NCBI RefSeq assembly: GCF_017255295.1
Contig: NZ_JAFKDE010000003.1
Location: 310,001-374,000, forward strand
DNA from: Nitratireductor aquimarinus
Lineage (GTDB): Bacteria > Pseudomonadota > Alphaproteobacteria > Rhizobiales > Rhizobiaceae
Direction: 5' to 3'
DNA: 64,000 nucleotides
Translations under genes and position numbers: made by a program
The notes under the pieces: model-generated
What the model was told of the DNA's origin: nothing
Seen by the model: the letters and a program-made list of their open reading frames with translations, nothing else
Database searches by the model: none
Shown here: positions 28,918 through 55,680 of the stretch, piece after piece
How positions within the stretch are numbered: the first letter of the stretch is position 1
Layout of the letters: each line of letters opens with the position of its first letter

Positions 28918-29349
28918 TTAACCGCCCTCGCCTTCGCGCCCGGGGATTGCGACGCGCATGATGCGACCGCCAAGCCCGTGCACGGTGTCATGCGCACGTA
29001 CAGTCACATGACCGAGCCCCCCTGGCAGCGCGACACCTGAAAGGCTGCGCGTAAAAGGCTGCTCATTCACATGTGGGTGGAGAAGCGTTCGGGAGGCGAT
29101 GACCCTGCCAGCGTCATCCAGCACATCCCAGCGATCTGCATAGTGATCCCAGCCTTCGTCCTCATGCTCGACCGTCACGTCGAAGCGATGGGTTCCGTCA
29201 CCGTCAGCAATGATGTCGACCGCGACAACATCTGCTTCACCGGCATTCACCGGCGATGGCGCAAGGGCCGTCGCCACCGCAAAAAAGAAAAGCCCGGCAG
29301 GCCTGCTCAGACACGGTGCGGTCGAAGCGGCTCTGCCGGGCTTTTTCAT
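28918..29349 (-). CDS. Secreted hypothetical protein whose 5' end is the ssb terminator
   Basis: 143 residues: a signal peptide (about 1-36, hydrophobic core LFFFAVATALAPSPVNA, likely cleavage after NAG/A) and a small domain with DVTVEHEDEGWDHYADRWDV and HPHVNEQPFTRSLSGV that I believe recurs in alphaproteobacteria, function unknown. The ATG is 14 bases after the ssb stop and has GAGGCGGA upstream. The first 20 codons are the ssb terminator stem-loop, an odd overlap (see findings). No other ATG would keep the signal peptide. Coding status is good but not certain. Confidence 0.75.
   Translation of the reverse strand: MKKPGRAASTAPCLSRPAGLFFFAVATALAPSPVNAGEADVVAVDIIADGDGTHRFDVTVEHEDEGWDHYADRWDVLDDAGRVIASRTLLHPHVNEQPFTRSLSGVALPGGLGHVTVRAHDTVHGLGGRIMRVAIPGREGEGG
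29281..29346 (-). terminator. Intrinsic terminator of ssb
   Basis: Arms AAAAGCCCGGCAG (29288-29300) and CTGCCGGGCTTTT (29333-29345) pair perfectly over 13 bp; on the minus strand the stem is followed by CTTTTTT (to 29281). It begins 18 bases after the ssb stop. It lies wholly inside the first codons of the next gene. Confidence 0.85.
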
Positions 29350-29363
29350 GCGACTGTTCCGCC

Positions 29364-29864
29364 TCAGAACGGAATTTCGTCGTCGAGGTTCTGCGAGTAA
29401 CCGCCACCGCCGCCGCCGCTGCTGCCACCGGTGTCGGCGGGACCGGACTGGCCGAAGTCGGAGCTGCGACCACCGCCGCCGCCATAACCGACCTGGTTGT
29501 CACCGCCCTGCCCGCGCGCGTCGAGCATCTGCAGCTCGCCACGGAACTTCTGCAGAACGATTTCCGTCGTGTAGCGGTCCTGACCGTTCTGGTCCGTCCA
29601 TTTGCGCGTCTGGAGCTGGCCCTCGACGTAAACCTTGGCGCCCTTCTTCAGATACTGTTCCGCCACCTTGGCAAGATTGTCGTTGAAGATCACGACATTG
29701 TGCCACTCGGTGCGCTCGCGCCGCTCGCCGGACTGGCGATCACGCCAGGTTTCCGAGGTCGCGATGCGGATGTTGACCACCGGATCACCGGAGTTGAGCC
29801 GGCGGATTTCCGGGTCTGCACCCAGATTTCCCACCAGAATGACCTTGTTGACGCTGCCCGCCAT
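29364..29864 (-). CDS. ssb: Single-stranded DNA-binding protein
   Basis: Protects single-stranded DNA in replication, recombination and repair. 166 residues: OB-fold (about 1-110) with [55 protein letters not shown], then a Gly-rich flexible tail, and the partner-binding tip DDEIPF. Divergent from uvrA as in E. coli. An SOS box lies about 105 bp upstream of the start. Confidence 0.98.
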
Positions 29865-29969: not shown

Positions 29970-29984
29970 GTTCTTCTTATGTTC
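29970..29984 (-). promoter_or_regulatory. LexA (SOS) box upstream of ssb
   Basis: GTTC-TTCTTAT-GTTC matches exactly the direct-repeat SOS box known for alphaproteobacteria (GTTC-N7-GTTC). It lies 106 bp upstream of the ssb start, within promoter range. The match is seen; LexA binding is inferred. Confidence 0.7.
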
Positions 29985-30047: not shown

Positions 30048-30087
30048 GGAAAAAGCCCCGCCGCTATTCTTCAAGCGCGCGGGGCTT
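30048..30087 (-). terminator. Orphan intrinsic terminator in the ssb-uvrA gap
   Basis: AAGCCCCGC (30053-30061) and GCGGGGCTT (30079-30087), with an inner CGCT/AGCG extension, make a 13-bp stem with one bulge. Read on the minus strand it is followed by TTTTTCC. That polarity ends a minus-strand transcript coming from above 30090, yet no known gene lies there. Confidence 0.65.
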
Positions 30088-30311
30088 CGGGTCTTCTGAC
30101 CCTCCGTACCGGGAGTGGTTTACCGGTAATCATCAGGCAGGACGGGTTTCACCGTCCCTGTCTTCAAAGAGATTTGATTTTCATGGGGCAGCCAGCCGCC
30201 AGCGTTGTCGTGCCTGCCGACGAAAAAGGTTCTGCAGTGCAGTGTCCTCAATCGTCATGGACCGCGTCGGGAACGCATGATCGTACGAGACGGTTATGCG
30301 CTCAGGACCGA

Positions 30312-30371
30312 TCAGCCAGCTGTGGCTTCGCACAAGAGGCGAAGCCCGATGCGTCGGTCAGGTGGAGTCAT
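30312..30371 (-). CDS. Candidate 19-codon leader-type peptide
   Basis: ATG at 30371 is preceded by a very strong AAGGAGGGAGGC site and runs for 19 codons (MTPPDRRIGLRLLCEATAG) to a TGA. Almost the whole ORF lies in the stem-loop 30306-30359. A second short frame (30181-30258, MTIEDTALQNLFRRQARQR...) follows without a good ribosome site. Leader-peptide function is a guess; too short for coding statistics. Confidence 0.25.
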   Translation of the reverse strand: MTPPDRRIGLRLLCEATAG

Positions 30372-30617
30372 GCCTCCCTCCTTCTTCGCGTTACGAGGCT
30401 TTGCTCGGTGTCAGCGTGCTCAAGCAACCATGCGCGCCCGAAGCGCCCACCGGCGCGGTTTCAAGGGCGGCCAACAGCCACGAGCACTGACGAAAATGAT
30501 ACTGCGCCTTTGGTGAATGGCGGTCAAGGCGATGCGGCGGCGCGGGCGAAATTGTGATCATCTGTAACGGATGCTCACGAGAGCCAGCCCGGCGCAGGAC
30601 GATAGTGTCAGGAGCGT

Positions 30618-30632
30618 GTTCGATATTTGTTC
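30618..30632 (+). promoter_or_regulatory. LexA (SOS) box upstream of uvrA
   Basis: GTTC-GATATTT-GTTC, an exact alphaproteobacterial SOS box, 172 bp upstream of the uvrA start. The long spacing leaves room for a promoter and leader downstream of the box. Confidence 0.75.
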
Positions 30633-30803: not shown

Positions 30804-33728
<2,925 letters not shown>

Positions 33729-55568: not shown

Positions 55569-55680
55569 TCTTTTTCCTTTCCGGTTGAACCTCCACGGAC
55601 CGTCAGGCGGAAACCGCCACCGGGGGCGCCGACCGGATTTCTCCCGACCGGAACCAAGATCCGTGTGTGGAATGCGCGCG

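What the first reader, a model, noticed from the sequence alone, without database searches (positions are those of the whole stretch)
30048..30400. Orphan terminator and hairpin array in the ssb-uvrA gap: possible unannotated RNA
A clear intrinsic terminator of minus-strand polarity (30048-30087) has no gene feeding it: the nearest minus-strand candidate start is over 300 bases upstream, and uvrA runs the other way. Just before it are GGGTC-TTCT-GACCC, TACCGG/CCGGTA, an extended GGACGG/CCGTCC hairpin and a long stem at 30306-30359. A terminator with nothing to end usually marks a small RNA or leader. I could not match it to tmRNA, RNase P RNA, 6S, SRP RNA or a known riboswitch. It also sits between two SOS boxes, so it might be damage-regulated.
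Basis: partly seen in the sequence, partly recalled or inferred. Interest (0 to 1): 0.7.

Follow-up and report, generated by a model that had tools for sequence, protein, structure and literature searches.

The report
Conserved proline-leader RNA beside uvrA
The gap beside a DNA-repair gene holds an unannotated RNA gene, found in many alphaproteobacteria, that starts with a tiny reading frame encoding two prolines placed so that a ribosome pausing there would touch an RNA hairpin; it may be a sensor of how well ribosomes cope with proline.

Summary
The orphan terminator and hairpins are real and belong to a conserved, unannotated RNA gene on the minus strand (about 30490 to 30050) with its own promoter, covarying stems and terminator. 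Nine of ten genomes of the genus (taken to be Nitratireductor) carry it. A genome-wide model scan finds it in 65 of 161 family genomes at E<=0.05 (61 at E<=0.001), one copy each but for one weak second match, and in scattered genomes elsewhere in the class. No Rfam family reaches threshold.

Across 102 distinct copies the residue after Pro-Pro is Asp 79, Gly 8, Glu 6, other 9. A covarying hairpin starts 15-16 nt after the first base of the second Pro codon in 68 of them, about where the front of a ribosome paused on Pro-Pro should end. Two distant copies with two extra N-terminal codons keep that spacing.

Most likely this is a free-standing RNA whose folding or fate is set by ribosome pausing at Pro-Pro-Asp/Gly. 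It is not an ssb leader, and SOS control is not supported. Transcription, pausing and targets are untested.

The parts
30549..30559 (-). Conserved upstream site GATCACAATTT (consensus GATCACATTT), possible activator site
   Evidence: GATCAC lies exactly 32 nt before TTGAC in 29 of 49 elements, 32-33 nt in 33 of 49; any such pair in 36 of 49 against 0.03 of 49 when shuffled;
30496..30528 (-). Promoter CTTGACC - about 17 nt - GCAGTATCAT; predicted start of transcription near 30490
   Evidence: TTGAC 60-260 nt before the ATG in 48 of 49 elements against a mean of 7.5 (largest 14) when shuffled; alignment; start site inferred
30372..30381 (-). Shine-Dalgarno region GGAGGGAGGC
   Evidence: SD-like sequence in 101 of 102 distinct elements, partly required by the search pattern
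30312..30371 (-). Short ORF MTPPDRRIGLRLLCEATAG* (19 codons plus stop); M-x-P-P-D/G conserved across genera
30324..30346 (-). Hairpin 1 inside the ORF (8 bp, 7-nt loop); base starts 16 nt after the first base of the second Pro codon
   Evidence: 52 cells changed on both sides in 49 sequences against 16.1 shuffled, 0 of 500; pairs with such a change 7 of 8 against 5.3, reached by 34 of 500; spacing
30314..30322 (-). 5' arm of long-range helix 2, covering the last codons of the ORF
   Evidence: alignment A2 columns 50-58, 100% of cells paired, 2 of 9 pairs changed on both sides
30189..30197 (-). 3' arm of helix 2
   Evidence: alignment A2 columns 187-195
30185..30209 (-). Most conserved block of the 3' half (GACAACGCTGGCGGCTGGCTGCCCC), possible interaction region
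   Evidence: function inferred
30140..30158 (-). Hairpin GGGACGG/CCGTCC
   Evidence: helix 6, 86.7% of cells paired, 3 of 5 pairs changed on both sides
30108..30127 (-). Hairpin ACCGG-TAAACCACTC-CCGGT; similar hairpin in Mesorhizobium
   Evidence: helix 7, A-U to G-C in 4 of 9 sequences; strict pattern in 22 of 102 elements
30089..30102 (-). Hairpin GGGTC-AGAA-GACCC
   Evidence: helix 8, 3 of 5 pairs changed on both sides
30050..30088 (-). Intrinsic terminator of the RNA
   Evidence: a terminator found in 71 of 94 elements against 19 of 94 base-shuffled; an earlier cruder scan missed some
29970..29984 (+). SOS-type box before ssb (context, not part of the RNA)
   Evidence: consensus GTTC-N7-GTTC recalled
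30618..30632 (+). SOS-type box before uvrA (context, not part of the RNA)
   Evidence: consensus recalled

Best explanation
A free-standing RNA gene of about 440 nt is transcribed on the minus strand from a promoter near 30500 to the terminator at 30050. Its 5' part carries a short ORF starting M-x-Pro-Pro-Asp (Gly or Glu in relatives). A ribosome that initiates here is expected to slow when the second Pro codon is in the P site and Asp/Gly is in the A site. Its front edge then lies against the base of hairpin 1, so hairpin 1 and helix 2, which hides the end of the ORF, stay folded. If the ribosome gets past Pro-Pro and on to the stop codon, both are melted and the 3' half can refold, be cut, or fail to be completed. 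The RNA thus reads how well the cell translates Pro-Pro motifs (EF-P, YebC or related supply) and passes this on through its own level or through 3' loops that pair with other RNAs. Shown by sequence: the transcription-unit anatomy, conservation, covariation, ORF pattern and spacing. Inferred: transcription, pausing, refolding and action in trans.
For: RNA gene: 9 of 10 same-genus genomes match. 16 of 60 pairs change on both sides against 6.8 in shuffles, 0 of 500 as high. The minus strand is better than the plus strand on the same nine sequences (-80.3 against -66.5 kcal/mol; covariation term -3.74 against -1.91), with G-U cells 65 against A-C cells 3. TTGAC upstream in 48 of 49 against 7.5 shuffled, with GATCAC 32-33 nt before it in 33 of 49. 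Terminator in 71 of 94 against 19 of 94 shuffled. Free-standing: in two Mesorhizobium loci read in full, opposite-strand ORFs lie between it and ssb. Outside the family 6 of 10 order hits and 9 of 9 class hits show no uvrA or ssb match within the flanks fetched, at most about 1.5 kb. ORF: Shine-Dalgarno in 101 of 102. Third positions of codons 3-5 vary while Pro-Pro-Asp is kept. Pro-Pro is followed by D 79, G 8, E 6, K 5, N 2, Q 1, P 1 of 102. Geometry: hairpin base 15-16 nt from the second Pro codon in 68 of 102, 12-17 nt in 93 of 102. L230 and L231, with two extra N-terminal codons, have the core hairpin at 16 nt. Papers, passages seen only: PPG and polyproline motifs stall ribosomes and EF-P relieves it (PMC5021804). 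Without YebC the pause score at PPG rises when the second proline is in the P site, and stays raised for three more codons (PMC12234827).
Against: No transcript, ribosome footprint or toeprint was seen. The Pro-Pro count is partly by construction: the first searches and the start-finding rule required CCNCC, and the covariance models were trained on such copies. That PPD is a strong stall motif is recalled; the two papers do not mention it. PPK (5 copies) and PPE (6) are weaker stall motifs by recall. One weak model hit, L254, reads MTPSD and was dropped. In 9 of 102 copies the best stem found lies at 23 nt or more, and for L231 the automatic finder, which adds outer pairs, gives 13 rather than 16. 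The ribosome's front reach of about 15 nt is recalled. Fixed spacing could also reflect shared descent, since many copies are close relatives. The 3' half differs between genera, so one common trans target is not evident. The Mesorhizobium alignment has a covariation term of only -0.22. The covariation controls do not fully remove relatedness.
Confidence: 0.45

Rival explanations
1. A plain trans-acting sRNA: the region around ATG-ACTCCACC is not translated but is an exposed pairing region resembling anti-Shine-Dalgarno sequences that binds mRNAs; hairpins and terminator serve stability and Hfq binding.
For: Own promoter, hairpins and terminator. C-rich, nearly invariant stretch. A second CUCC-containing loop in the 3' half of some copies (22 of 102).
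Against: A pairing region should be invariant, yet the variation sits at third codon positions (A/G, then G/T/C). A Shine-Dalgarno site is kept at a fixed place. Two distant copies insert exactly two codons before Pro-Pro. PPD becomes PPG in distant copies by a codon change.
Confidence: 0.17
2. A dual-function transcript: the 11-19 residue peptide itself does something in the cell, and the hairpin shape is a by-product of constraint on RNA stability.
For: 39 of 102 ORFs are exactly 19 codons. Copies in other families share endings such as SRLG, SRIG or PRLG.
Against: Only M-x-P-P-D/G is widely kept; lengths run from 6 to 39 codons and many stop inside the hairpin. The residues over the hairpin change with the stem.
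Confidence: 0.13
3. An abortive or attenuating leader of the mgtL/mgtP/mgtQ type: proline and acidic residues at the N-terminus slow or abort the ribosome depending on Mg2+, charged tRNA-Pro or ribosome composition, and this sets Rho-dependent or structural control of the RNA itself, without an EF-P role.
For: N-terminal Pro plus Asp/Glu mix. Published leader ORFs couple such events to stem-loops: mgtL (PMC5021804, passages), mgtP and mgtQ (PMC8092293, passages).
Against: PPG copies lack an acidic residue at that place. No fixed gene lies downstream. For mgtQ the acidic residues mattered and its single proline did not act by stalling.
Confidence: 0.15
4. A transcription attenuator or 5' leader of ssb (or of whatever gene lies downstream).
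For: In Nitratireductor ssb lies downstream on the same strand.
Against: In Mesorhizobium copies the ATG lies roughly 2.3-2.9 kb from ssb, with opposite-strand ORFs between in the two loci read. 15 of 19 loci outside the family show no ssb or uvrA in the flanks fetched. An SOS-type box lies between terminator and ssb.
Confidence: 0.05
5. No RNA: a terminator remnant and GC-rich DNA palindromes.
For: The DNA folds well on both strands.
Against: Covariation with G-U bias for one strand, conserved promoter and ORF, one copy per genome and wide conservation.
Confidence: 0.02

Closest known systems
Salmonella mgtL / mgtP / mgtQ leader ORFs
   Same: Very short ORF with proline or acidic codons near the start, beside alternative stem-loops; translation state decides RNA fate (PMC8092293 and PMC5021804, passages).
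   Different: Those sit in front of or between Mg2+-transport genes in cis. This RNA ends at its own terminator with no fixed downstream gene, and its Pro-Pro-Asp/Gly motif is followed by a hairpin at near-constant distance.
EF-P- and YebC-dependent Pro-Pro-X ribosome pausing (PPG, polyproline)
   Same: Same tripeptide class; pausing with the second proline in the P site is reported for PPG without YebC (PMC12234827, passages).
   Different: There the motif is inside ordinary proteins or reporters; here it is codons 3-5 of a free-standing small RNA.
Intergenic alphaproteobacterial sRNAs (families of PMC3927594; Brucella list of PMC9751625)
   Same: Single intergenic transcription unit with covarying stems and terminator.
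   Different: The main texts of PMC3927594, PMC5596092 and PMC9751625 do not contain uvrA or ssb (term counts). The Hfq-bound B. suis BSnc121 (116 nt, orientation '<- <- ->', table seen) has a fitting orientation and, by recalled locus-tag arithmetic, might be the homologue; not verified.
Bradyrhizobium BjsR3
   Same: An sRNA whose terminator stem-loop has homologues in Brucella and Mesorhizobium (PMC5082802, passages).
   Different: Only the terminator is said to be shared; its sequence was not seen here, so identity is untested.

Membership tests
Trans-acting intergenic sRNA | Own promoter | tested here: met
   TTGAC upstream in 48 of 49 against 7.5 shuffled; GATCAC-TTGAC pair in 36 of 49 against 0.03; sequence only
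Trans-acting intergenic sRNA | Own intrinsic terminator | tested here: met
   71 of 94 against 19 of 94 shuffled; window copy
Trans-acting intergenic sRNA | Conserved covarying secondary structure on the transcribed strand | tested here: met
   Mesorhizobium alignment alone adds little covariation
Trans-acting intergenic sRNA | Base-pairs with target RNAs, Hfq or similar chaperone | not tested
   no target search was run; needs RNA experiments
Leader-peptide / arrest ORF | Translated short ORF with Shine-Dalgarno | tested here: inconclusive
   Sequence signature met (101 of 102 SD-like, third-position variation); translation itself not shown
Leader-peptide / arrest ORF | Conserved stall residues | tested here: met
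   Pro-Pro then D, G or E in 93 of 102, partly by construction of the searches
Leader-peptide / arrest ORF | Ribosome stall shown and relieved by EF-P or another factor | not testable with these tools
   needs toeprinting or ribosome profiling
Leader-peptide / arrest ORF | Regulated gene in cis downstream | tested here: not met
   no constant downstream gene in the loci looked at
Any Rfam family (tmRNA, RNase P, 6S, SRP, riboswitches, described sRNAs) | Covariance-model score above gathering cut-off | tested here: not met
   none in the gap (at E<=10 only two chance-level hits of 15 bits) or in 20 homologous loci; no tRNA or tmRNA in the window
SOS (LexA) regulon | SOS box in the RNA's own promoter | tested here: not met
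   exact GTTC-N7-GTTC search: boxes at 29970-29984 and 30618-30632, none between
B. suis BSnc121 / Bradyrhizobium BjsR3 | Same locus and sequence | not testable with these tools
   sequences not held

The most novel reading that the evidence does not exclude
A new alphaproteobacterial RNA family that works as a free-standing sensor of translation elongation: a ribosome paused at Pro-Pro-Asp/Gly in codons 3-5 sits flush against a hairpin, and whether it moves on (EF-P/YebC activity, Pro-tRNA, Mg2+) switches the fold, completion or lifetime of an RNA that then acts elsewhere in the cell.
Probability: 0.35. Interest if true: 0.9.

Novelty: new variant of a known kind. Interest (0 to 1): 0.74.

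Why it matters
Leader peptides that sense the ribosome are known in front of genes they control, but a conserved, single-copy, stand-alone RNA built round a Pro-Pro-Asp/Gly pause would be a new arrangement. It would give a directly testable readout of EF-P and YebC function in plant symbionts and related bacteria. It also adds a widely conserved RNA gene that the Rfam copy searched here does not hold.

Tried and rejected
Known RNA families: no Rfam family reached its gathering score in the region; at E<=10 there were two chance-level hits, a trypanosome snoRNA (E 3.9) and asX2 (E 4.3); none in 20 homologous loci. Plasmid collection, distant blastn: no match. ssb leader or attenuator: disfavoured by gene order. 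SOS control: not supported by the position of the boxes. A repeat or mobile element: disfavoured, one copy in the own genome with up to 2 mismatches in a 16-nt core; in 65 of 161 family genomes one match each except G087, whose second match is weak and partial.

Weak model hits judged spurious or doubtful: L223 (inside a coding gene), L266 (looks antisense in a coding gene), L254 (MTPSD, E 0.004, dropped before the counts), L233 and L234 (E 0.006 and 0.010, kept in the 102 but doubtful). Four of the 65 family genomes have only weak matches (G160, G132, G084, G060; E 0.004-0.047). The motif count upstream of uvrA looked only within 900 nt and is a lower bound: it missed the copy in G087, which the model found. 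One false motif match, in ssb of L163, was left out. A regulon idea for the promoter (GATCAC...TTGAC) gave only this locus in 9 of 10 genus genomes. A phylum-wide scan matched 13 of 299 genomes: 12 in the window's order and the spurious L266. Ten literature searches: in the listings shown I saw no sRNA at ssb-uvrA and no matching leader; one paper held all terms (PMC2248561, on phylogenetic footprints) and was not opened. I did not search for mRNA targets.

Full report
What was checked. The gap between ssb (29364-29864, minus) and uvrA (30804-33728, plus) was read. The minus-strand terminator 30050-30088 is real: one strong terminator on that strand against 0.03-0.04 per strand in 150 dinucleotide shuffles. 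The tool's simple scan did not list it. The region folds better than all 100 shuffles on both strands, so a single sequence does not tell the strand.

Conservation in the genus. Searching 60 genomes with the gap gave matches in 9 of 10 same-genus genomes, the own one included (G006 none), and one short match in another genus (G017). G003's contig has the same length (51190) as a Nitratireductor soli ZZ-1 contig, so I take the window to be Nitratireductor. The ten matched loci all have ssb and uvrA either side. The alignment shows conserved blocks running from a promoter to the terminator. On nine genus sequences from the ATG to the terminator (A2; the other-genus L010 left out), RNAalifold gives -80.3 kcal/mol on the minus strand (covariation -3.74) and -66.5 on the plus strand (-1.91). 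For a 60-pair structure, taken from that prediction, 95.0% of cells pair and 16 pairs show changes on both sides (shuffles 6.8, 0 of 500 as high; slid controls 3-8). G-U cells number 65 and A-C cells 3, though the structure was predicted on that strand. Of the long stem only the inner hairpin is.

The missed reading frame. Just upstream lies GGAGGGAGGC-ATG-ACT-CCA-CCT-GAC, a 19-codon ORF (30371-30312) whose codons 9-16 form hairpin 1. The motif was found upstream of uvrA or ssb in Mesorhizobium, Chelativorans, Phyllobacterium and Brucella pseudogrignonensis records. I then fetched the region upstream of uvrA from 100 of the 158 family genomes with a uvrA match. At least 39 of these 100 carry the motif within 900 nt, 49 of 110 with the ten earlier ones, which were chosen because they matched. 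In the 49, hairpin 1 has 52 cells changed on both sides (shuffles 16.1, 0 of 500) and 88% of cells paired; the number of pairs with such a change, 7, is reached by 34 of 500 shuffles. Variation in codons 3-5 falls mainly on third positions. Positions 1-2 of codons 3-4 were fixed by the search pattern, except in the ten loci found by DNA similarity alone, where Pro-Pro is also invariant.

Wider spread. A covariance model of Shine-Dalgarno, ORF start and hairpin 1 (R1) matched 19 of 297 genomes across the order. Eleven lie outside the family, one of them spurious (L223). Of the other ten, four lie upstream of uvrA, within about 1.3 kb (L215, L219, L220, L222); the other six show no uvrA or ssb in the flanks. 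A second model (R2 from 33 of the 49 plus these ten) matched 10 of 385 genomes across the class, the own one included, 65 of 161 in the family at E<=0.05, 61 at E<=0.001, and 13 of 299 in the phylum (the only one outside the window's order is spurious). With many genomes at once the tool uses stricter filters, so weak copies are missed. The short ORFs in distant families read, for example, MTPPGSHVGPRAEAGSRLG, MSPPDSIFGPRSPARSRIG, MTPPDHLIGPR and MNPPDSIPGPAG.... Rfam finds nothing above threshold in 20 such loci.

The geometry. Among 102 distinct elements (106 before removing duplicates; L230 and L254 not placed by the start rule; L230 read separately, L254 dropped) Pro-Pro is followed by D 79, G 8, E 6, K 5, N 2, Q 1, P 1, and hairpin 1 starts 15-16 nt after the first base of the second Pro codon in 68 and 12-17 nt in 93; in 9 the best stem found lies further away. 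Distinct does not mean independent: many copies are close relatives. ORF length is 19 in 39 of 102 and otherwise 6 to 39, often ending in the hairpin. L230 and L231, from two other families, have two extra codons before Pro-Pro yet have the core hairpin at 16 nt (the automatic finder, adding outer pairs, gives 13 for L231). So the spacing seems to be held from the Pro codons, not from the start codon. A ribosome covers about 15 nt ahead of the first P-site base (recalled). Published work reports that without YebC pausing at PPG rises with the second proline in the P site and stays raised for three codons (PMC12234827, passages), and that EF-P relieves PPG and polyproline stalls (PMC5021804, passages). 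That PPD is a strong stall motif is recalled. A ribosome paused on Pro-Pro would touch but not open the hairpin.

Transcription unit. TTGAC lies 60-260 nt before the ATG in 48 of 49 elements (shuffled mean 7.5, largest 14). GATCAC precedes it by exactly 32 nt in 29, by 32-33 nt in 33, and by any of the tested distances in 36 (shuffled mean 0.03) (alignment). In 9 of 10 genus genomes the pattern GATCACRWTT-N20-24-TTGAC occurs once, at this locus. Terminators follow in 71 of 94 elements against 19 of 94 base-shuffled ones. In the two Mesorhizobium loci read, opposite-strand ORFs follow. Twelve Mesorhizobium sequences fold into the same order of parts: hairpin 1, a helix hiding the end of the ORF, a CCGG hairpin with an ACTC loop, a short hairpin and the terminator. 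The covariation term there is small (-0.22), so this supports the layout but not independently the pairing.

Reading. The firm part is an unannotated, conserved RNA gene with a short ORF. The inferred part is that a Pro-Pro-Asp/Gly pause sets its fold or fate. Against this: nothing was measured, PPK and PPE copies exist, the Pro-Pro count is partly built into the searches, and the 3' half differs between genera. The SOS idea is not supported.

Prior knowledge. Ten paper searches listed no sRNA at ssb-uvrA and no such leader that I could see; most subscription papers are not held. The Hfq-bound B. suis BSnc121 (table in PMC9751625, section seen in part) has a fitting orientation and may be the same RNA; this is unverified.

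Noticed in passing
window 55569-55669 (-): Rfam match to the rpsB sRNA family (RF01815, 46.4 bits, E 7.8e-06).
   Followed up: no
window about 29290-29343: Inverted repeat AAAAGCCCGGCAG...CTGCCGGGCTTTT after ssb that looks like a terminator in both directions; the scan's two matches here are no more than shuffles give (2 against 2.3).
   Followed up: no
window 30549-30559 and equivalents rows: GATCACATTT lies 32 nt upstream of TTGAC in 29 of 49 copies, but AAATGTGATC or a near variant, its reverse complement, lies much closer to TTGAC in some others (L104, L118, L125, L126, L139, L142, L168), as if one factor binds in either orientation.
   Followed up: partly
L018, L021 upstream of ssb: The ssb-uvrA gap is about 2.8 kb in seven Mesorhizobium records measured but 1.26 and 0.85 kb in two others (L027, L063); in L018 and L021 it holds opposite-strand ORFs, including ClpP-like and ArsR-like ones (names recalled from sequence look).
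   Followed up: no
L235, L236, L237, L238: In four family genomes the element lies far from uvrA or on another contig and reads MTPPES... or MSPPES... (Glu instead of Asp).
   Followed up: partly
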